Below are positions 5,001 through 23,660 of a stretch of 64,000 nucleotides of DNA, one piece after another. Position 1 is the stretch's first letter, and every line of letters begins with the position of its first letter. This DNA comes from a virus. Both the position numbers and the translations under genes were made by a program. The stretch spans positions 1-64,000 of the IMG/VR virus record IMGVR_UViG_3300035698_010358; one strand, 5' to 3'. The notes beneath the pieces are model-generated. The model saw nothing but the letters and a program-made list of their open reading frames with translations, was not told where the DNA came from and searched no databases.

Positions 5001-6559
5001 AAAAGCAGCGTGAGCGTATGACGTGGGCTGCGGGTCGTAAGGCGAGTGCCCCACCCGCAGTTCCTGGCTACAACGTGGAAGACCAAGATCATCCAGCACA
5101 CAACGGACCCGATCCTGACATGCACAAGTATGAAAATGGTGATACGTCCAGTTGGGCTGAAGATGTCCGTCAACCCCCTTACCCCGAAGGCAATCCTCCG
5201 GCTACCCCCGGATATGATGCTGAAGACCAGGACCACCCGGCTCACCAGAGTCCACCTCGTGTGTCCCTGACAGCAGCCGTTCGGAAACGTGCCAGCAAAT
5301 GTCTGAAACTTGCAGGCATTCAGTTGGATGGCAGGAAGATGACCAAAGCTCAAATCGAAGACCATGCAATGGACTTGATGGAGCTGGGTGACTCTCAAAT
5401 CGATAACATGCTTAACCGTTTCGGTGGTGGGTTCCTCGCTGACGAAATGGATATGGGAGAAGTTACCGAACCGATTGCTGATGATCTGGACGAACTTCTG
5501 TCGATGGATGAATTGGAAGATGATATGGCTCTCGAAGAACCTATCCTTGCTTCTGATGACGATGACGATGACGATGATGAGTCTGATAAGGAAGCATCTT
5601 CTGAAAAGACAGCAGTGGAATCCATCATGGCAAAACTGGAAGCCATGTCCGCTGATATTGCTACTCTGAAAGGTGATGTTGTTGCATCTGATGATGATGA
5701 TGATGACGAAGAAGAACCTGACAAAGAAGCAGCCAGTCAGAATGACCCTAAAGGTCCAACCCTTGCTCCAACTCCGAAGTCAGAAGATGAAGCCCGTAAA
5801 GAGGCTTCTGACCCTATCCTTCAGGAATTCGATTCGTATGACACCGGTAAAACGGGATTCGTCAGCGTTGATGAATGGCAGGGCAGTAAAGCTGTGTTTG
5901 CAGCACTGGATACCGACAACGACAAGATTCTTGCTCGTGTCGACCTTGTAGCTTCCTGTAGTTCAGTAGTCGAAGCAGGTCTGGAACCTGAAGAAGTGGC
6001 TATGTTGGCTGAGATGACAGCGGGTGCTGAAGTTGGAGCCTCTGCCTGTAACCCAACTTCTGACATCCTTGAAGATGAAGAGATGATGGGTGATCCGATG
6101 GAACTGGAACTCATGGATGAGCCTCTCGTAGGTGAGCCCATGATTGTGGCTGAAGAAGATGCTGGTATGTTCGGCATGACGCATGACCCAATGGGACTCT
6201 CTGACGGTGCTCCTATCATGTCCTCTGAGGACGATGCCATGCTCGAAGAAATCTTCGGTGGTAAAGTTGCCAAGAAATCCGATGACGATGACGAAGAAGT
6301 TATCGAAGAAGAAGTCGAAGGCAAAAAGAAATCAGCTAAGAAATCTGATGCTGAAGAAGAAGAAGAAGTCGTAGAGGAAGAAGTCGAAGGCAAGAAAAAA
6401 GCTGCCAAGACTGCTTCCCAACGGCCTCAACCCCGTAAGAGGAGTGCTGGTGTCCAGCAGGTTGGGAACATGACCAAAGCTGCTTCCAGTAACGAATTCA
6501 AAGAACTCCAGAGCATGTGGGCATCTGATCCTGACGTGTCTGACGTGTTCGGTAGCTAG
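4997..6559 (+). CDS. Acidic scaffold/prohead core-like protein
   Basis: A 520-residue, strongly acidic protein. Two 'PGYxxEDQDHPAH' repeats lie near the N-terminus, then several Asp runs. An EF-hand-like segment (~275-315, with 'DSYDTGKTGFVS' and 'DTDNDKI') follows, and a C-terminal Lys/Glu region repeats 'EVEGKKK'. Start overlaps the protease stop by four bases, the usual order of protease followed by scaffold. Acidity, low complexity and position indicate a scaffolding or core protein degraded or packaged during maturation. The EF-hand resemblance is visual only. A terminator follows. Confidence 0.65.
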   Translation: MKKQRERMTWAAGRKASAPPAVPGYNVEDQDHPAHNGPDPDMHKYENGDTSSWAEDVRQPPYPEGNPPATPGYDAEDQDHPAHQSPPRVSLTAAVRKRASKCLKLAGIQLDGRKMTKAQIEDHAMDLMELGDSQIDNMLNRFGGGFLADEMDMGEVTEPIADDLDELLSMDELEDDMALEEPILASDDDDDDDDESDKEASSEKTAVESIMAKLEAMSADIATLKGDVVASDDDDDDEEEPDKEAASQNDPKGPTLAPTPKSEDEARKEASDPILQEFDSYDTGKTGFVSVDEWQGSKAVFAALDTDNDKILARVDLVASCSSVVEAGLEPEEVAMLAEMTAGAEVGASACNPTSDILEDEEMMGDPMELELMDEPLVGEPMIVAEEDAGMFGMTHDPMGLSDGAPIMSSEDDAMLEEIFGGKVAKKSDDDDEEVIEEEVEGKKKSAKKSDAEEEEEVVEEEVEGKKKAAKTASQRPQPRKRSAGVQQVGNMTKAASSNEFKELQSMWASDPDVSDVFGS

Positions 6560-6567
6560 ACCTTTGC

Positions 6568-6604
6568 AACCCTCTCGGATGCCTCGTAGTCCGAGAGGGT
6601 TTTG
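6568..6604 (+). terminator. Rho-independent terminator after the scaffold-like gene
   Basis: A perfect 12-bp stem (AACCCTCTCGGA / TCCGAGAGGGTT) with a 10-base loop and a short T run, placed nine bases after the stop codon. Confidence 0.8.
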
Positions 6605-6655
6605 AAAAGTAAATAACTTTTTTATCGGTAGATTCCTTATATCGACCGACATTTA

Positions 6656-6669
6656 AGTATAGAAGTACC
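6656..6669 (+). promoter_or_regulatory. Candidate phage promoter element (AGTATAGAAGTACC)
   Basis: This lies between the terminator at 6568 and the start of the capsid gene block at 6771. It is preceded by TTCCTTATAT at 6633-6642, as is the copy near 25507. Inferred to drive the highly expressed capsid genes. Confidence 0.4.
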
Positions 6670-6770
6670 ACAGAAGCCTACGCGGAGGCTGATGTGGATT
6701 GGTAATTGAATGATGAATTTATTTTCATCCCAACTAACCCTGTAAACAGGGAGTCAAAAGGAGGCTTAAC

Positions 6771-7469
6771 ATGCCTATCGGACTCGGACAGGCCAGTGGT
6801 GGGTGGACAGAATCGTCAGCAGCTCTGAGAATACTTTATGCAGGTATTCGTAATACAGAGGGTCTGTTGACTGATGATGCCTATACCCAAACCAATCCAC
6901 CGGCAGTTGCAACGAATGTTAGCACCAAGGTTGATACGACCATCAATGGCGTACTCAGCGGAAGTGTGGCATTTACTCGCCCAGACGTAGGAAGCGATAA
7001 CATTGGTGGTGCAGGCAGTGCAGCTAACCAGCTTGCAATTCAGAATGCCGTTGCTCAGGCAATCGGTTTCAAAGCCCTCGGTGTTTTCATCAACACAGCA
7101 GTAGGTAATGCCTACGAGAACCAACCTGGTATTGCCAGTGGTCGTGGACCGTACATGTCCCAAATGGGAACTTACGGAAACCAACTGTACGAAACAGCCT
7201 TAATTGGTGATTCGGTCGGTGGTGACCCTGCAGCCGGTGCAGCCCTTGTGTATTACACAGGTGTTGGTCTCATTGCATCACGTAACGGTTACCTGACTCC
7301 AGCCCAGCAGCTCAATGCAGCTGCTAATGCTATCATCTCTTGTGATGATATCACGGTTGCAGCCGAATCGTATGTGTTGAACACTGATAATTCTTCAACC
7401 CTGCTTGGTATCGTAAAGATGCCGCCGGATGCGACTCAAGCTGAAGTCGTGTACGATCAGCGGATATAA
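6771..7469 (+). CDS. Head structural protein preceding the major capsid protein
   Basis: A 232-residue protein rich in Ala, Gly, Thr and Asn with no long charged segments, as in decoration or minor capsid proteins. It begins MPIGLGQASGGW after a clear AAAGGAGG ribosome binding site. It lies 11 bases before the major capsid gene and shares its promoter and terminator, so it should be made in large amount. I do not recognise a named family. A decoration, vertex or head-completion role is inferred from position. Confidence 0.7.
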   Translation: MPIGLGQASGGWTESSAALRILYAGIRNTEGLLTDDAYTQTNPPAVATNVSTKVDTTINGVLSGSVAFTRPDVGSDNIGGAGSAANQLAIQNAVAQAIGFKALGVFINTAVGNAYENQPGIASGRGPYMSQMGTYGNQLYETALIGDSVGGDPAAGAALVYYTGVGLIASRNGYLTPAQQLNAAANAIISCDDITVAAESYVLNTDNSSTLLGIVKMPPDATQAEVVYDQRI

Positions 7470-17668: not shown

Positions 17669-18028
17669 ATGGCCACTGTCCTTGCTAATAGTCCATTCAC
17701 ATTTCAGGTTTTATTCCTGGATGTGGACAATACCCCAATTGTTGTGTTGAATCCAACGATTACTATATTCAGTTATAGTGACCTTGGGGTAAAACAAGAG
17801 TTGGTTGCTGCCACCGTAATGGATCCAGTTACCCCCGTGGAAGTTGGCCGTTATATTTACACGTATACCGTGCCCAGTGTTTTTGATGAAGGGGATATGA
17901 TTTACGGTGAGATAATGGGAGAGCATCCTGTCAGTGGAGACCTTCTACGGTATAGTGAAGGTGTCTCAGTGGTGACGTTGCCGCCGGGGTCCCAAGGGTT
18001 GTCTTGGAATATCATCAAAGGTGGTTGA
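17669..18028 (+). CDS. Small beta-rich connector-like protein
   Basis: A 119-residue protein that starts directly after the preceding stop. The whole sequence reads as alternating strands (FTFQVLFLDVDNTPIVVL, TVPSVFDEGDMIYGEIMG), consistent with an Ig-like or beta-sandwich fold. It resembles in general layout the N-terminal part of the first fragment of the fractured gene at 18688 (beta-sandwich with 'GRYIYTYTVP' compared with 'GEYYASLMVP'). A neck or adaptor role is inferred only from position. Confidence 0.65.
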   Translation: MATVLANSPFTFQVLFLDVDNTPIVVLNPTITIFSYSDLGVKQELVAATVMDPVTPVEVGRYIYTYTVPSVFDEGDMIYGEIMGEHPVSGDLLRYSEGVSVVTLPPGSQGLSWNIIKGG

Positions 18029-18030
18029 AA

Positions 18031-18327
18031 ATGCTGTGGGTTTTGTTTCTTTTAGCCGTGTATGGCATCGTGTTCCTGCTCAGGCATAAATGGGAGCTGG
18101 GGTTTCTTCGTGGCTTCGAGTTCTTTGAGAGGCTATTGGACTGTGCCTTCTGTTTAGGTTTCTGGGTTGGAGGTCTAGTATGGACGGTCATTCAGACATT
18201 TTCCGACCTCATCATGGACACTAATAGTTGGATTGGGTTCTTTTTCTTCGGGATTATGTGGTCCTTTGCTTCAGCAGCGTTCTGTTACAACGTGGATAGA
18301 ATCGTGGAGGATTCAGAATGGATATGA
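18031..18327 (+). CDS. Membrane protein with a CxxCLGFW motif
   Basis: A 98-residue hydrophobic protein. ATG at 18031 is preferred over the upstream TTG because AAGGTGG lies six bases upstream and it avoids overlap. It has an N-terminal hydrophobic segment (LWVLFLLAVYGIVFLL), a middle segment with 'LDCAFCLGFWVGGLVW', and a third (FFFFGIMWSFASAAF), so two to three membrane spans. The 'C-F-C-L-G-F-W' motif resembles DUF1360-type membrane proteins. It probably acts in the host membrane; lysis, superinfection exclusion or assembly roles cannot be distinguished. Confidence 0.7.
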   Translation: MLWVLFLLAVYGIVFLLRHKWELGFLRGFEFFERLLDCAFCLGFWVGGLVWTVIQTFSDLIMDTNSWIGFFFFGIMWSFASAAFCYNVDRIVEDSEWI

Positions 18328-18686
18328 GGATAGATTGCCAAGTAGACGTACCTATAGAGGTTCAAGGTGGTAATTTTGCTGATGCCTTTCGGATCATCAC
18401 TTTAAAAAATGATGAGTGTCTTTTGGATTTCATGTCCATCTCACAATGCCGTACCAAAGCATCTGTTGTGGCCAGAATCCGTGTAGAGAATAAATTCATG
18501 GCTTCTATTAGGGATCGATTGGAATCAACCCTGGAAGAAATAGATGGTAAGCATTACGGTACTCTGACACCAAAACAAGTTGAAGAGATGTGGTTTTTAG
18601 TAGACCAGTTTCCGATAGATGATGACCAGGAAGAAGGAGCATTACCATTAGCTTGGTATGTAACCCCTTCAGAAAAGGTAGATTAA
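18318..18686 (+). CDS. Paralogue of the 8876 protein with a C-terminal extension
   Basis: A 122-residue protein starting inside the end of the membrane protein gene with GGAGG seven bases upstream. Residues ~20-75 (DAFRIITL...LLDFMSI...ASVVARIRV...MASIRDRLESTLEEI) align with most of the 77-residue protein at 8876. Residues ~76-122 are an acidic extension absent there. It is immediately followed by the fractured gene, so it may be an assembly partner; function unknown. Confidence 0.65.
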   Translation: MDMRIDCQVDVPIEVQGGNFADAFRIITLKNDECLLDFMSISQCRTKASVVARIRVENKFMASIRDRLESTLEEIDGKHYGTLTPKQVEEMWFLVDQFPIDDDQEEGALPLAWYVTPSEKVD

Positions 18687-18687
18687 G

Positions 18688-19188
18688 ATGTCAGTTGCAT
18701 TTGTTCCTGGAGAAACGATAGGGCGGGGGGATCTGGACATTTTCTTGCAGAGTGCTCAAGGTAACCCTGCAAATGCAGCAGAGATTTATTACACCCTCTA
18801 TTACGTATCCCCCGGACCCCCCGAATCTGAAGTTCAGGTTGGACAACCCCAACGAATACCAGTGAATCCAGCCGTCGGGGAGTATTATGCTTCTCTAATG
18901 GTTCCAGCAGGCTCAACCCCTGGGACGTATAGGATTCGGTGGACGTTCCGAGAATTGGTGAATTCTCCCCAGCAGCAAGTTGTTCAAGAATTTGCTGTTG
19001 TCACTGCAGCAGGGATAGCATTGGTTCCTGGATATGACCCGTATCAAACAGCAATGATGAATAGTCTTAGAATGCTTCTCAGAGATCAGTGTGTTGGTGA
19101 GGAGGTGAAAGTCGAAGTAGATGCCGACGGGGAACTTCTGGTTGTGTCTATGAAGGACTTATGGGAGGCTTTGAAAGATGAAGTCTAG
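18688..19188 (+). CDS. Fractured virion gene, piece 1: N-extein plus IntN of split intein 1
   Basis: A 166-residue product. Residues 1-134 are the N-terminal extein: an Ig-like beta domain (~1-100) followed by a helical start ending 'MLLRDQ'. From Cys135 (base 19090) the sequence changes to an intein block A pattern, CVGEEVKVEV, and stops after only 32 intein residues. The missing intein blocks B, F and G are at the start of the piece at 20085, where the extein resumes with Cys. Known atypically split inteins also have short N-halves. The product should ligate by trans-splicing to piece 2. The host protein is unnamed; position and C-terminal pieces indicate a connector/neck or other virion protein. 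Confidence 0.85.
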   Translation: MSVAFVPGETIGRGDLDIFLQSAQGNPANAAEIYYTLYYVSPGPPESEVQVGQPQRIPVNPAVGEYYASLMVPAGSTPGTYRIRWTFRELVNSPQQQVVQEFAVVTAAGIALVPGYDPYQTAMMNSLRMLLRDQCVGEEVKVEVDADGELLVVSMKDLWEALKDEV

Positions 19189-20101
19189 CCAACCACATGT
19201 AAAACTAGTACCCTTGTTAGAGAAATATAATATTTCTTGGGGTTTATTTTGTAAAAAAGGTCGTTTGCCTAATGACTTGAAGTGGGTAAAAGAGAAACGT
19301 GTGTTTATCATTACAGAATTACACTCTCAAGGCACCTCCTGGGCCAATATGGTATTTATTACGGGTTTGTCTCAAGGTTCTATTCAGCGTTTAACTAAAG
19401 CTATGTGGAACCAAGCATCACGGGACAAATTGAATAAAATAGGTGAGAAGGTTGGGAAATCATGGAAAGGTAAAAAACGTCTAGGGCAATTAGAAAAACA
19501 ATGGAAAAATGGCGTTTTTGATTTTCATCGAGGACGGAAAAGACCGGAGTGGGAAAAAGAAAAATTACGTGCTTCATGGACACCTGAATTAAGGGCACAA
19601 GTATCGGAAGAACGGTTAAAACGGTGGCAAGACCCGGAATACCGAAAAAACCTTTTAGATTACCACAGAAGTCCTGAAGTTAGGGCTGAGAGGTCTAAAT
19701 TACAAACAGAACGGATACTGGCTGATCCTGTGAAATGGACAAAGGGTCGGGGTGCTTATGTTGAGGCTCTAAAAGAAAAACGAGAGGTTGTGTGGACACG
19801 GAGTTCATATGAACGAAGAGCTCTCTTAGTATTAGATAGTGATCCTAATGTGGTTTCTTATGAGTATGAACCACGGATAGAGTTGTCTGATGGTTTTTGG
19901 ATAGTTCCTGATTTTTTAGTGTTCTTTAAAGATGGGTCTCAAACTCTTTTAGAAATAAAAGCCTCTTGGGTATACGGTCTTCCAGAGGGCCATAAAATTC
20001 ACATTAGATTAGAGAAATCTAAAAAGTTAGCTTGTGATAGAGGTTGGGGTTTTTCTATATGGACTGAGAAAGATAGGTTGGAAGATGTTAAGTGTGCATA
20101 A
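19178..20101 (+). CDS. Free-standing putative homing endonuclease, PD-(D/E)XK type, inside split intein 1
   Basis: A 307-residue basic protein encoded between the two halves of split intein 1, overlapping piece 1 by 11 bases and piece 2 by 17. An N-terminal HTH-like region (~40-75) and repeats of the NUMOD3 kind (RWQDPEYRKNLLD, HRSPEVRAERS, ~145-180) suggest DNA binding. The C-terminal ~100 residues contain 'SYERRAL', 'VPDFLVFF' (~242-249) and 'LLEIKAS' (~256-262), the Asp...Glu-x-Lys arrangement of PD-(D/E)XK nucleases. Inferred to cut intein-less alleles and spread the split intein. It is AT-richer and Lys-richer than the exteins, consistent with foreign origin. Confidence 0.75.
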   Translation: MKSSQPHVKLVPLLEKYNISWGLFCKKGRLPNDLKWVKEKRVFIITELHSQGTSWANMVFITGLSQGSIQRLTKAMWNQASRDKLNKIGEKVGKSWKGKKRLGQLEKQWKNGVFDFHRGRKRPEWEKEKLRASWTPELRAQVSEERLKRWQDPEYRKNLLDYHRSPEVRAERSKLQTERILADPVKWTKGRGAYVEALKEKREVVWTRSSYERRALLVLDSDPNVVSYEYEPRIELSDGFWIVPDFLVFFKDGSQTLLEIKASWVYGLPEGHKIHIRLEKSKKLACDRGWGFSIWTEKDRLEDVKCA

Positions 20102-20849
20102 CAAATTGGTTCAGGCTTTTCGTGCAGGGAAACTGAAAACCCGATCTGTATCCCCTGAAGGAAAATTGGAGTGGAAACCCATAACGGATGTTCATAGGGC
20201 TGAAGTTCCTTGGGAAGAGATTATACAGGTTGGCACAGATCAAGGACATACTTATCTGACTAAAGGGCACAGGGTTTTTGTATCCCCTACTGCAAAACGG
20301 GAAACTGGGGATTTAATAAAAGGTGATGGGGTTCTAGGTGTAGATTTACAGGATAATGTATTTCATCCTGTAATAGTGTCTACAGATACTGTACCATCAC
20401 GTAAATATATGTATGATATGACTGTTGCAGACTGGCATAATTTTGTTTTGTTCGATTCTCGGATTGTTATTAGTAATTGCCCTGATAAATTCTACCATTT
20501 CCGACCACCAGAGTATGAAGGTGACATTGGCCAATACAATCGAATATTCGGACAGATTTGGGAAGATGCTGAACTTCTGGAATATCTGTTGAGATCTTTG
20601 GATTGGTTCAACATGTTCCCTCCCCTGACACAGAAAATCAATACTCTCACACGTTTGGTTCAAGATATGCCCTCGTGGAGGACAGCGATCCTTTGGGGCG
20701 CAATTACCCATGCCTGTTTTGCACTTTCAATAAATTGGGTTGCTGACGAATTTTCTGTTAGGGGTGACCAGGAAGTGACCGTTATAACAAAAACAGGGAA
20801 AAAGGTTACGTTGTCTATTCAGGAGTTGTATGAAATATGCAAGGGATGA
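20085..20849 (+). CDS. Fractured virion gene, piece 2: IntC of intein 1, middle extein, IntN of intein 2
   Basis: A 254-residue product with three parts. Residues 1-131 are intein 1 C-part: a block B-like 'YLTKGHRVFV', block F 'YDMTVADWHNF' and block G 'RIVISN' directly before Cys (base 20478). Residues 132-223 are the middle extein, starting CPDKFYHFRPPEYEG and ending 'INWVADEF'. Residues 224-254 begin SVRGDQEVTV (base 20754), block A of a second intein, and stop. ATG 20085 is chosen for the upstream TTGGAAG. The penultimate intein residue is Ser rather than the usual His. This protein must splice at both ends. Confidence 0.85.
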   Translation: MLSVHNKLVQAFRAGKLKTRSVSPEGKLEWKPITDVHRAEVPWEEIIQVGTDQGHTYLTKGHRVFVSPTAKRETGDLIKGDGVLGVDLQDNVFHPVIVSTDTVPSRKYMYDMTVADWHNFVLFDSRIVISNCPDKFYHFRPPEYEGDIGQYNRIFGQIWEDAELLEYLLRSLDWFNMFPPLTQKINTLTRLVQDMPSWRTAILWGAITHACFALSINWVADEFSVRGDQEVTVITKTGKKVTLSIQELYEICKG

Positions 20850-21787
20850 TAACAAAACGACAAATTTTGTTGAAATACGGGTTCAATGACAAGACTTTCC
20901 GAAAGATGATGTCCGAGGGGGTTGTCAGCCCTGATTATATTCAACAAGGTAAAAGAAAAACCTTATTTTTTAAAGAGGGCTCTTTGAGGTTTGTTGAAAA
21001 CCTTCACTATGTTATTTGTTTAGAGTGTGGAAAATGGATGAGTCAGATCACCACGAAGCATTTAAAAAGCTGTAGTGGAATGGTATTGCAGGATTACAAG
21101 GAAAAGTACCCTAAAGTTCTATTGATCTGTTATAGGACTAATGGTAACCATGTAAAAACAGAAGAACAAAAGCAAAGACAGTCAGATGTTTTAAAGGCAC
21201 GTTTCCAAACGGAAGAAGGGCAGAAAACCCGAGAAGTTATTTGCCAAGCATCTATTCGTTTAATGAAAGGCCCGTATCGTAAACAAGCTGCAAAACACCT
21301 AAAGGATTTGAATCAGACTACCAAGATGAAGGAATTTCATCGGGGGCATACCAAGAAAAGATGGGAAGATGGCGGGGATCTTCGGTATCTTATCCCAAAA
21401 TGGCATCTGGATAATAAGGATTATTCAAATCAATTGGCCGCAAATGCTCGTAGGTTTATAAAGAAAATTTCAAAGCCGCACATTAGGTTAAAAGTTTTAT
21501 TGGAAGCTGCTGGTATCCCAACAGTTACGGAATATGAAGTCGGTTACTATGCCATTGATGAAGCAATTCCAGGGAAAAAGATATCCATTGAGATGCATGG
21601 TTGTTATTGGCATAGTTGTCCTGTTTGTGGGTTGGAAGGTCCTTCCCTGAATAAAAGGATTGACAAGTCTAAAGCTACTTATCTGAAAAATAGGGGTTGG
21701 GAACTTGTAGTGATTTGGGAACATGAGTTGAAAAATAATCCTGAAATGTGTATTGATCGGGTGAAGGAGGTTGTAATAGGATGTTGA
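20837..21787 (+). CDS. Free-standing putative homing endonuclease, Vsr-like, inside split intein 2
   Basis: A 316-residue protein between the halves of split intein 2, overlapping piece 2 by 13 bases (4 if translation starts at ATG 20846) and piece 3 by 7. N-terminal region: HTH-like 'MITKRQILLKYGFNDKTFRKMM', then a ROS/MucR-like zinc finger 'CLECGKWMSQITTKHLKSC' (~60-80). C-terminal region: 'ISIEMHGCYWHSCPVCG' and 'NRGWELVVIWEHEL' (~247-297), the layout of very-short-patch-repair (Vsr) nucleases. Vsr-like (EDxHD) homing nucleases are the family reported with fractured genes and split inteins. Inferred to mobilise intein 2. Confidence 0.8.
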   Translation: MQGMITKRQILLKYGFNDKTFRKMMSEGVVSPDYIQQGKRKTLFFKEGSLRFVENLHYVICLECGKWMSQITTKHLKSCSGMVLQDYKEKYPKVLLICYRTNGNHVKTEEQKQRQSDVLKARFQTEEGQKTREVICQASIRLMKGPYRKQAAKHLKDLNQTTKMKEFHRGHTKKRWEDGGDLRYLIPKWHLDNKDYSNQLAANARRFIKKISKPHIRLKVLLEAAGIPTVTEYEVGYYAIDEAIPGKKISIEMHGCYWHSCPVCGLEGPSLNKRIDKSKATYLKNRGWELVVIWEHELKNNPEMCIDRVKEVVIGC

Positions 21788-22467
21788 CTGATGCTTTAAA
21801 AAGAGAGATTAAGGAATCCTTTGAAGAGGGTTCCCTGAAAGTCCTTAGCGTGAACCCAGATTCTTTAGAGCCCTCTTTAGAATCGGTTACTGATGTTATG
21901 AGGCATCTTACTCCTCATAAAACAATTTTGGATGTTGAGACCTCACAGGGGCATACTGTTACGACTGAAGATCACAGTTTGTTCATGGAGGATATGTCTA
22001 CGGTACCAACTTCTGAGTTGCAGGTGGGGGGTTGTATTGCTTGTATTCAGAACGGGGTCTATCAACCGACCCCTATTCTGGGCATTTCGGAAACGTTGAG
22101 GGAACAATATACTTATGATTTATCTGTCCCTTCATTTGAGAATTTTGTCTTGTCCAATGGAGTGGTTGCACATAACTCATATAGCATAGGGGGAGTGTCC
22201 TTAGATATCGATAAATCTGCCAAATATGAGTCCTTAAAGCAGAATGCTGAGGGACAACTGACTTTGGCCACCGAGGCCAAGCAACGGACAGTGAAATTCA
22301 TTCGTGGGCTACAGCAGCCCAGATTCGGGATGGGTGTTAGGTCGAGTTTTGGCCCGTTTGTGGGGAAAGGTATACTTAGCCCTCGTAATTTCGTGGCTTG
22401 GGCTTCTGTTATATTAGTACCAGCTTTGATGTTTGTTAGTTCTGCTAACAGTTCAGGTTTGGTCTAG
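21781..22467 (+). CDS. Fractured virion gene, piece 3: IntC of intein 2 plus C-extein
   Basis: A 228-residue product. Residues 1-132 are intein 2 C-part: 'TVTTEDHSLFM' (block B, T-x-x-H), 'YDLSVPSFENF' (block F, with Glu where His is common) and 'GVVAHN' (block G) directly before Ser (base 22177). Residues 133-228 are the last extein, beginning SYSIGGVSLDID, with 'RSSFGPFVGKGILSPRNFVAW' (read in parts) and a hydrophobic C-terminus. ATG 21781 follows AAGGAGG. After two trans-splicing events the exteins (134+92+96) give one 322-residue protein with junctions LLRDQ/CPDKF and VADEF/SYSIG. Confidence 0.85.
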   Translation: MLTDALKREIKESFEEGSLKVLSVNPDSLEPSLESVTDVMRHLTPHKTILDVETSQGHTVTTEDHSLFMEDMSTVPTSELQVGGCIACIQNGVYQPTPILGISETLREQYTYDLSVPSFENFVLSNGVVAHNSYSIGGVSLDIDKSAKYESLKQNAEGQLTLATEAKQRTVKFIRGLQQPRFGMGVRSSFGPFVGKGILSPRNFVAWASVILVPALMFVSSANSSGLV

Positions 22468-22648
22468 GTGTATGTTTGATAGAAGTTTAGAATTACGTAT
22501 TGGGGGTAATGTTCTTAATTAACTGTTGTATTTTTTGTATGCGTTGGTTAATATCTGTGTTTATTTCAGAAATAAGAAGCCTGAGATCACGGTTAATAGG
22601 ATTCAAAGGTTCCTTGGTATTCGGTAAGGTAGTTATAATTACCTTATT

Positions 22649-22659
22649 AGTATTGAAGG
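22649..22659 (+). promoter_or_regulatory. Candidate phage promoter element (AGTATTGAAGG)
   Basis: It lies 20-30 bases before the ATG at 22680, downstream of GGTTCCTTGGTAT and of a dyad (TAAGGTA / TTACCTTA, about 22624-22645). It resembles the elements at 6656, 17365 and 25507. It is in the 212-base gap after the fractured gene, in which I see no gene. Confidence 0.35.
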
Positions 22660-22679
22660 ATTTTTTAAGGAGATAGAAA

Positions 22680-23477
22680 ATGGATAAAGCATCTTTTACT
22701 TTTAATGAGAACTGGTTTTTCCCAGATCCTCCTGCTCGGATTGAGAATCTTCTTTATATGGCACAGAAAGTTGACCCTAGTGCTCATGTGGACGATTCTC
22801 AATACCAAAATAAAGTGGTGGTAGATAAGAAAAAGGCACCAGCCTTAATTAAGGTATTCGAATCCAAAGGAATGTTTGTGTCTGAAGAGAAACGTGGGGC
22901 CTACAAGGTGTTGTGGGGTAAAAAGCGGGCAAACGAGAGTCAGGGTTTACGTGGCCATGTAGAGAAATTAGCCAATGAGAACCCAGAGTTAAGGGGGCAT
23001 CTGGTTCCTTTGTTGAAACAGGCTGCAACACAAAAGTTTAATCCTGAGATGATCTCAAAAGCTAAGAAGCTCCTAAATACTATGAAAAATTATGGTTGGC
23101 AGTGGGGTGATGACAATCTGAAAGAAGTTTCTCGTAATGGGGAGTTTTATTTTTCACAGATGAGTCCTCATAATGCTCCTTGGGATGATGAAGAGGATTT
23201 CAAAACATATGTCCCTCCTTTTCGGGCAGGGCAGCTTTTTCGGAAATATAAAGTGGAGGACCACGCTGGATTGGTAGCAGTTCTTCATAAATTGCAGGAA
23301 CAGTGGAAGAAGGATTCCTTTAAGTTTTCGAGGGTTGTAGGTAAAATTACCCCAAAGGATGCTGATGTTAAGTTATTGTTTAACCCTGACCGTCAAGGTA
23401 CACTTTTTGCACAGGTATATGTGAATGCCCAGCCTTACCTAGAGTGGACAAGTCATCGTGCTAAAGAGGAGAAGTGA
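22680..23477 (+). CDS. Accessory protein with an internal ANENPELR signature
   Basis: A 265-residue protein with an AAGGAGATAG ribosome binding site. Residues 1-85 are a small alpha/beta domain (FTFNENWFFPDPPARIENLL). Residues ~93-118 hold the signature (VEKLANENPELRGHLVPLL) that is N-terminal in the genes at 8468, 24309 and 24766. Residues 120-265 are unrelated and Trp/Asp-rich. The internal signature suggests fusion of a separate small domain in front of a signature protein. Codon usage is more AT-rich than in the structural genes. Function unknown. Confidence 0.7.
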   Translation: MDKASFTFNENWFFPDPPARIENLLYMAQKVDPSAHVDDSQYQNKVVVDKKKAPALIKVFESKGMFVSEEKRGAYKVLWGKKRANESQGLRGHVEKLANENPELRGHLVPLLKQAATQKFNPEMISKAKKLLNTMKNYGWQWGDDNLKEVSRNGEFYFSQMSPHNAPWDDEEDFKTYVPPFRAGQLFRKYKVEDHAGLVAVLHKLQEQWKKDSFKFSRVVGKITPKDADVKLLFNPDRQGTLFAQVYVNAQPYLEWTSHRAKEEK

Positions 23478-23660
23478 TGTTGGAATGGTTTCAAAAATTG
23501 TTTATAGAAAAACCCCCCTGAGCCTCTACCCCTCAAGTATCGGGATTTAGGTAATAACGAGGTTGAAGTGTCTTGTGGTGACCGTAAAACTACAGCTATT
23601 TATTTTTCAGAGGCTGCTGTGGAATATATTGAAGCAGCTAAGAAAAGGATATTGTCATAA
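23477..23660 (+). pseudogene. Small gene interrupted by a one-base shift at a C6 run, or +1 programmed frameshift
   Basis: Starts at ATG 23477 (overlapping the previous stop). It reads 14 codons ending in Pro-Pro then TGA at the C-run 23513-23518. Skipping one base there gives a coherent continuation (PEPLPLKYRDLGNNEVEV...EAAVEYIEAAKKRILS) to TAA at 23660, where the next gene starts. Either one extra C arose by mutation or sequencing error, or ribosomes shift +1 at CCC-CCC-TGA; slippery CCC-U before a stop is a known +1 context. The intact product would be ~60 residues, function unknown. Confidence 0.55.

What the first reader, a model, noticed from the sequence alone, without database searches (positions are those of the whole stretch)
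20754..22176. Intein 2 uses a Ser/Ser chemistry different from intein 1, suggesting orthogonality
Intein 2 begins with Ser and is followed by Ser +1; intein 1 begins with Cys and is followed by Cys +1. Intein 2 keeps the penultimate His (AHN) but has Glu in the block F position where His is common (SFENF). The two C-parts have a similar plan but low visible identity. Different chemistry and sequence would prevent cross-splicing that would delete the 92-residue middle extein.
Basis: partly seen in the sequence, partly recalled or inferred. Interest (0 to 1): 0.7.

Follow-up and report, generated by a model that had tools for sequence, protein, structure and literature searches.

The report
Two independent split inteins, one gene
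A large phage encodes one virion protein as three separate pieces that two different split inteins should join; the second intein really does use serine chemistry, but its whole lineage does, and that chemistry is unlikely to be what keeps the two inteins from cross-reacting.

Summary
The letters are right. Intein 2 spans exactly 20754-22176: Ser1, Ser+1, block F Glu (SFENF), penultimate His (AHN); intein 1 is Cys1/Cys+1. Both are atypically split (IntN 31-32 aa, IntC 131-132 aa) around a nuclease gene. In 106 distinct homologous loci, 21 site-1 inteins are all Cys1 (+1 Ser 14, Cys 7) and lack the Ser1-specific 'motif NX' His; 25 site-2 inteins are all Ser1 (+1 Ser 23, Thr 2) with NX His, block-F Glu/Gln and penultimate His. 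Phages with one intein show the same chemistry as the eight with both, so it is a lineage trait, not an adaptation to co-residence. IntC1 and IntC2 are 29% identical and in fully separated clades (100/100); co-resident pairs are no more divergent than shuffled ones. They are old, separate homing cassettes with different nuclease families; orthogonality most likely follows from fragment divergence. Chemistry would not block the mispair that deletes the 92-aa middle extein (Cys1 with Ser+1 is native to 14 of 21 site-1 inteins); it should hinder only the reverse mispair. Orthogonality is likely but untested. New: both +1 nucleophiles arrive with the inteins, and one phage encodes the halves in permuted order.

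The parts
18688..19089 (+). Extein A (134 aa), N-terminal third of the host protein (Ig-like domain in the model of homologue L012)
19090..19185 (+). IntN1, 32 aa, Cys1 (stop 19186-19188)
   Evidence: 21 site-1 homologues all Cys1
19178..20101 (+). EN1, TnsA-like nuclease ORF between the halves of intein 1; overlaps both halves
   Evidence: Pfam TnsA-like 0.0011, NCBIfam TnsA_like 1.3e-7; only nuclease type found at site 1
20085..20477 (+). IntC1, 131 aa: block B TxxH, block F WHNF, ends ISN; no motif NX His
20478..20753 (+). Extein B (92 aa), begins with Cys+1; made as IntC1-ExtB-IntN2 fusion
   Evidence: intein-free homologues have Asn here in 77 of 85
20754..20846 (+). IntN2, 31 aa, Ser1 (stop 20847-20849)
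   Evidence: 25 site-2 homologues all Ser1
20837..21787 (+). EN2, Vsr/MTES_1575-like homing-endonuclease ORF between the halves of intein 2; overlaps both halves
   Evidence: phrog_3339 homing endonuclease 2.9e-11, Pfam MTES_1575 3.4e-6, TIGR00632 vsr 1.4e-5; only nuclease type at site 2
21765..21770 (+). AGGAGG Shine-Dalgarno-like motif 10 nt before the IntC2 start
   Evidence: sequence
21781..22176 (+). IntC2, 132 aa, class-1 intein C-part
   Evidence: Pfam Intein_splicing 2.8e-12, TIGR01443 1.5e-5
21904..21906 (+). His42 of IntC2 (VMRH): motif NX histidine of Ser1 inteins; 25/25 at site 2, 0/21 at site 1
   Evidence: motif defined in PMC10189870
21973..21975 (+). Block B His65 (TEDH)
   Evidence: invariant in 25/25
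22138..22140 (+). Block F Glu120 (FENF), where site-1 inteins have His
22171..22176 (+). Penultimate His131 and terminal Asn132
22177..22464 (+). Extein C (96 aa), begins with Ser+1 (codon TCA)
   Evidence: intein-free homologues have Asp here in 74 of 81; about 30 nt downstream look co-converted

Best explanation
Intein 2 is an active-looking, atypically split class-1 intein of the Ser1/Ser+1 (oxyester) subgroup with its own Vsr-like homing nuclease. It shares one virion gene with an independent Cys1 split-intein cassette that carries a TnsA-like nuclease. Three proteins are made: ExtA-IntN1, IntC1-ExtB-IntN2 and IntC2-ExtC. Each 31-32 aa IntN docks into its cognate IntC, and trans-splicing joins A-B-C into a 322-aa protein. 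Mispairing is avoided mainly because the two lineages diverged long before they met in this gene, so the IntN-IntC interfaces no longer match. The Ser/Ser chemistry was inherited with the site-2 lineage and adds at most a one-way barrier (Ser1 of IntN2 lacks its NX His partner in IntC1). Shown here: sequences, motifs, lineages, purifying selection, distribution. Inferred: splicing itself, cognate-only pairing, the one-way barrier.
For: Exact boundaries and motifs. 21/21 site-1 Cys1 and 25/25 site-2 Ser1, with the full Ser1 motif set (NX His, block-F E/Q, penultimate His 25/25), whether the phage has one intein or two. Two clades, 100/100; IntC identity within sites 42-45%, between sites 26% on average and at most 35%. 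Recognised nucleases at site 1 are only EN1-type, at site 2 only EN2-type. IntN and IntC diverge together beyond extein divergence (partial r 0.60 and 0.46, p 0.0002). dN/dS 0.00-0.27 in intein pieces where dS is not saturated. Locus L135 has IntC2-ExtC upstream of ExtA-ExtB-IntN2, so only trans-splicing could join them. Occupancy is scattered over the extein tree (18 and 20 changes) and the nearest relative, L042 (91% identical), has neither intein. Inteins at 35% identity with the same Ser/Ser chemistry were strictly orthogonal (PMC12707363).
Against: No splicing or cross-splicing assay. Short-IntN inteins are the ones that cross-react: an Ssp DnaX IntC spliced with small IntN 40-50% identical from other inteins (PMC3443213), and cross-signals in a 24 x 24 matrix came mostly from atypical splits (PMC7090010); the window pair (27%) lies below that, but L009 has 40%. 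The two lineages are still recognisably related (hhalign E 6.6e-27) and score each other about 64 bits against 22-43 for two other phage inteins, so they may be ancient paralogues.
Confidence: 0.78

Rival explanations
1. Chemistry is the barrier: Ser/Ser versus Cys/Cys prevents cross-splicing and was kept for that reason.
For: Position 1 differs in all eight dual phages; Ser1 activation needs the NX His that IntC1 lacks (motif and mutants in PMC10189870; 0/21 at site 1).
Against: The deletion-forming mispair is Cys1/Ser+1, native in 14/21 site-1 inteins, and four of eight dual phages have Ser+1 at both sites. Same chemistry in single-intein phages. Same-chemistry inteins can be orthogonal (PMC12707363). 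No excess divergence of co-resident pairs.
Confidence: 0.1
2. The pairs are only partly orthogonal: some cross-pairing occurs (A-C product, or cyclised ext B from the IntC1-ExtB-IntN2 piece) and is tolerated, or outcompeted by the cognate halves.
For: Small IntN fragments are the promiscuous kind (PMC3443213, PMC7090010); the middle piece has the IntC-cargo-IntN layout used to cyclise proteins (general knowledge); L009 IntN pair is 40% identical.
Against: Window IntN pair only 27% and IntC pair 29% identical; N1 and C2 are both negative in the window (-6 and -13).
Confidence: 0.15
3. Orthogonality was actively refined after the inteins met, for example by charge: acidic IntN1 repels acidic IntC2.
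For: In all six phages with both inteins split, N1 and C2 are both negative; IntC1 and IntC2 differ in charge as families (p 2e-5).
Against: C2 of dual phages is not significantly more acidic than C2 of site-2-only phages (p 0.14), and N1 and C1 do not differ (p 0.43, 0.83); overall identity shows no effect.
Confidence: 0.08
4. The fragments are decaying remnants and the host gene is dead or replaced by another copy.
For: One site-1 relative (L161) has degenerate block F and penultimate residues; the record is a 72-kb fragment, so a second copy cannot be excluded.
Against: All catalytic residues intact in the window; low dN/dS in intein halves and exteins; halves kept in L001 after loss of both nucleases.
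Confidence: 0.04

Closest known systems
PolB16 OarG split intein (Ser1/Ser+1, atypically split; PMC10189870, PDB 8cpn)
   Same: Ser1/Ser+1, short IntN (15 aa there, 31 aa here), class-1 motifs, motif NX His preceded by R/K
   Different: Different host gene (PolB), only E 0.0004 by profile; here block B His is conserved 25/25 and a nuclease ORF lies between the halves
Aes123 PolB1 / CL and LCGC14 PolB2 cysteine-less split inteins (PMC12707363, PDB 9hth)
   Same: Ser1 chemistry; strong fold match to 9hth; used in pairs as orthogonal three-piece ligation
   Different: Typically split (long IntN); polymerase genes; the orthogonal pair was assembled by engineers, not found in one gene
AceL-TerL / GOS-TerL / Cat atypically split inteins (as reviewed in PMC11766414)
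   Same: Split near the N terminus (IntN 25-30 aa)
   Different: Terminase host gene and other sequence family
Fractured genes with split inteins and Vsr-like homing endonucleases (Dassa et al. 2009, doi 10.1093/nar/gkp095; text not held, content from memory)
   Same: Split intein halves flanking a free-standing Vsr-like nuclease ORF in phage genes
   Different: Here two such cassettes sit in one gene, the other with a TnsA-like nuclease
Archaeal inteins PI-PkoII and TFIIB mini-inteins (PDB 2cw7, 5o9i)
   Same: ENF in block F and RH at the NX position, so the Glu at block F is not new
   Different: Contiguous, thermophilic, other hosts

Membership tests
Class-1 intein | HINT fold | tested here: met
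   Pfam PF14890 in 24/24 members; model of contiguous relative L136 pLDDT 97.6, top PDB matches are inteins
Class-1 intein | Nucleophile at position 1 and at +1, block B TxxH, terminal Asn | tested here: met
   25/25 site-2 inteins
Ser1 (cysteine-less junction) subgroup | Ser1 with Ser+1 or Thr+1 | tested here: met
   Ser1 25/25; +1 Ser 23, Thr 2
Ser1 (cysteine-less junction) subgroup | Motif NX His, preceded by R/K (PMC10189870) | tested here: met
   His 25/25, preceded by R/K in 22/25; absent in 21/21 Cys1 site-1 inteins
Naturally split intein, atypical split site | Halves on separate ORFs with short IntN | tested here: met
   IntN2 31 aa then stop, IntC2 on its own ORF; permuted order in L135
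Naturally split intein, atypical split site | Trans-splicing activity | not testable with these tools
   needs an assay
Fractured-gene homing cassette | Homing-type nuclease between the halves and co-converted flank | tested here: met
   EN2; 18 and 15 mismatches in the first 30 nt after the site against empty alleles L042 and L041, 4-9 in the other 30-nt bins
Fractured-gene homing cassette | Nuclease cuts the empty allele | not testable with these tools
   needs an assay
Mutually orthogonal split-intein pair | No cross-splicing of IntN1/IntC2 and IntN2/IntC1 | not testable with these tools
   only sequence divergence was tested
   29% identity; clades separated 100/100

The most novel reading that the evidence does not exclude
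A natural three-piece protein assembly with one-way chemical proofreading: the self-mispair of the middle piece (IntC1-ExtB-IntN2, which would cyclise ext B) is blocked because Ser1 of IntN2 cannot be activated in an IntC1 that lacks the NX histidine, while the A-C deletion mispair is blocked by interface and charge mismatch.
Probability: 0.25. Interest if true: 0.75.

Novelty: new variant of a known kind. Interest (0 to 1): 0.55.

Why it matters
Engineers build three-piece ligations from hand-picked orthogonal split inteins, and efficient serine-chemistry split inteins are very few. Here evolution has placed two short-IntN inteins of different chemistry in one gene (both split in six phages), with 46 distinct relatives, 25 of them Ser1. 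That gives a natural data set to ask what sets IntN-IntC specificity, and a supply of candidate Ser1 split inteins with an IntN of about 31 aa, short enough for chemical synthesis.

Tried and rejected
Charge complementarity as the evolved basis of orthogonality: the families differ, but dual phages do not differ significantly from single ones. Recombination or concerted evolution between the two inteins: own pairs are no more alike than shuffled pairs. Similarity of L009 IntN1 to IntN2 as a sign of exchange: it keeps the site-1 IntN motif and its IntC is in the site-1 clade. Intron instead of intein: no Rfam hit at 18000-23500. Rooting the two lineages with other phage inteins (TerL of Klebsiella phage Magnus, L148): long branches, not resolved. 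Fold of the extein: pLDDT only 70.8 and no significant PDB match, so 'head-tail connector' rests on the Tunturi_5 annotation and a weak PHROG hit. PHROGs on nine neighbouring ORFs: nothing.

Full report
1. What is there. The window is part of a 72,158-base IMG/VR virus record. One gene of 322 codons (sum of three exteins) is interrupted twice. The order is ExtA 18688-19089, IntN1 19090-19185, EN1 19178-20101, IntC1 20085-20477, ExtB 20478-20753, IntN2 20754-20846, EN2 20837-21787, IntC2 21781-22176, ExtC 22177-22464. The successive ORFs overlap at their ends, and an AGGAGG motif precedes the IntC2 start by 10 nt. Intein 1 is Cys1/Cys+1, with WHNF and a penultimate Ser (ISN). Each intein thus keeps one of the two C-terminal histidines: intein 1 the block-F one, intein 2 the penultimate one.

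2. Is it an intein. Pfam Intein_splicing matches P0005 (IntC2-ExtC) at 2.8e-12 and P0003 at 3.9e-4. A profile of site-2 relatives finds solved inteins down to 2.2e-18. Several relatives carry the same intein as one contiguous chain; a model of one (L136, 159 aa) has mean pLDDT 97.6 and its top PDB matches are inteins, among them the cysteine-less Aes123 PolB1. No intron family was found.

3. The comparative set. Five scans of viral contigs, with one phage-record search, gave 106 distinct extein loci: 68 without inteins, 13 with site 1 only, 17 with site 2 only, 8 with both. This sample is biased, because the extein scan kept its 80 best (mostly intein-free) loci and the other scans searched for inteins; the proportions are not frequencies. 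In six of the eight dual loci both inteins are split (window, L001, L002, L009, L131, L132); in L122 and L141 the site-2 intein is contiguous. Two further loci, L135 and L172, were read separately.

4. Chemistry is a lineage trait. Site 1: Cys1 21/21, +1 Ser 14 and Cys 7, block-F His 20/21, penultimate Ser 14, His 6, Lys 1, no His at the NX position 21/21. Site 2: Ser1 25/25, +1 Ser 23 and Thr 2, block-F Glu 19 and Gln 6, penultimate His 25/25, NX His 25/25. The NX His is the histidine that Pasch et al. (PMC10189870) found conserved only in Ser1 inteins and critical in the three they tested. So intein 2 belongs to the Ser1 subgroup by a test independent of Ser1 itself. The Glu at block F is not unusual: PI-PkoII and the TFIIB mini-inteins have ENF too. 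The same chemistry appears in phages with only one of the inteins, so it was not acquired to avoid a resident partner. The +1 residue of site 1 changed between Cys and Ser at least four times on the intein tree, so it is labile.

5. Are they close paralogues. No. IntC1 and IntC2 of the window are 29% identical, IntN1 and IntN2 27%. Between-site IntC identity averages 26% and never exceeds 35%; within-site it averages 42-45%. The tree separates the two sites with support 100/100. They are still more alike than either is to two other phage inteins (about 64 bits against 22-43), so a remote common origin is possible; the root could not be placed.

6. Is there a sign of selection for orthogonality. 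None that reaches significance. Mean IntC identity of co-resident pairs is 27.2%, of shuffled pairs 27.0%. In the deletion-forming mispair, N1 and C2 are both negative in all six fully split dual phages, but C2 of dual and single phages does not differ significantly (p 0.14). Within each site IntN and IntC diverge together beyond what the extein explains (partial r 0.60 and 0.46), as expected if halves are inherited as cognate pairs.

7. What each mispair would do. IntN1 with IntC2 joins A to C and drops the 92-aa ext B. That pair has Cys1 and Ser+1, which is native to 14 of 21 site-1 inteins here and to about 29% of inteins in a published survey (cited in PMC11766414). IntN2 with IntC1 would put Ser1 into an active site without the NX His; loss of that His abolished or nearly abolished splicing in three Ser1 inteins (PMC10189870). 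This mispair would sit within one polypeptide (IntC1-ExtB-IntN2) and would cyclise ext B. So the chemical difference gives at most a one-way barrier; this is inference. Published benchmarks: same-chemistry Ser/Ser inteins at 35% identity were strictly orthogonal, two derived from one parent were not (PMC12707363); small IntN fragments 40-50% identical did cross-react with an Ssp DnaX IntC (PMC3443213); most cross-signals in a 24 x 24 matrix involved short-fragment splits (PMC7090010). By these, the window pair (27%) should be orthogonal; L009 (40%) is nearer the limit.

8. Two homing cassettes. Every nuclease recognised at site 1 is EN1-type (TnsA-like) and every one at site 2 is EN2-type (Vsr-like); contiguous inteins have no recognised nuclease. 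Occupancy needs 18 and 20 changes on the extein tree and is not clustered (30 changes against 31 in shuffles for 'none'); the window's nearest relative, L042 (91% identical extein), has neither intein. At site 2 the first 30 nt downstream differ from the empty alleles L042 and L041 at 18 and 15 positions, against 4-9 in the other five bins, but at only 4 positions from intein-bearing L001: this looks like a co-converted tract. The +1 residue follows the inteins: site 1 is Asn in 77 of 85 empty loci and Cys/Ser in 21/21 occupied; site 2 is Asp in 74 of 81 empty loci and Ser/Thr in 25/25 occupied (Fisher 3e-21 and 2e-20; loci are related, so these p-values overstate independence). The spliced protein thus differs from intein-free homologues at both joints.

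9. Splicing must be in trans, at least in one relative. In L135 the IntC2-ExtC ORF (5995-6621) lies before the ExtA-ExtB-IntN2 ORF (6663-7433) on the same strand; no readthrough could join them in order. An assembly error cannot be excluded without reads. Low dN/dS in the intein halves where dS is not saturated (0.00-0.27) and retention of the halves in L001 after loss of both nucleases argue for function.

10. Host protein. Homologues are almost confined to uncultured large phages. Tunturiibacter phage Tunturi_5 annotates its copy as head-tail connector, and a distant match lies in Bacillus phage G gp165. The model of intein-free L012 has a beta-rich, Ig-like N-terminal domain and a helical C-terminal part at modest confidence, without a significant PDB match, so the function is tentative.

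11. Verdict. Orthogonality of the two inteins is likely (about 0.85 in my judgement), but because the fragments are old and divergent rather than because Ser/Ser differs from Cys/Cys. I found no report of two atypically split inteins of different chemistry in one natural gene in the papers searched, but the key 2009 paper on fractured genes was not held, so priority is unverified.

Noticed in passing
L135:5995-7433: Site-2 intein halves are encoded in permuted order (IntC2-ExtC upstream of ExtA-ExtB-IntN2); joining requires trans-splicing.
   Followed up: partly
L122, L141, L028, L097, L136, L147 (site 2), L005 (site 1): Contiguous nuclease-free versions of the same inteins; the tree needs 7 split/contiguous changes, and L122/L120 and L141/L143 are closely similar contiguous/split pairs, suggesting repeated re-fusion after nuclease loss.
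   Followed up: partly
L152, L154, L163, L168 (site 2); L096, L135 (site 1): Empty sites with Ser at +1 instead of Asp or Asn, possible footprints of lost inteins; at site 2 all four are in phages with a site-1 intein (4/13 vs 0/68, p 4e-4).
   Followed up: partly
window 20478-20480 and 22177-22179: The +1 nucleophile is not the usual residue at either site (Asn and Asp in empty alleles), so the mature protein is changed by the inteins.
   Followed up: yes
L172:3614-4624: In a contig binned as Altiarchaeales, an EN2-like remnant is fused in frame to IntC2-ExtC.
   Followed up: no
L161 site 1: Site-1 intein with block-F Tyr and penultimate Lys, possibly inactive or mechanistically odd.
   Followed up: no
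upstream of ExtA in L002, L003, L005, L006, L007, L020, L022-L026: A second ORF segment 25-40% identical to extein A, a possible tandem paralogue of the Ig-like domain.
   Followed up: no
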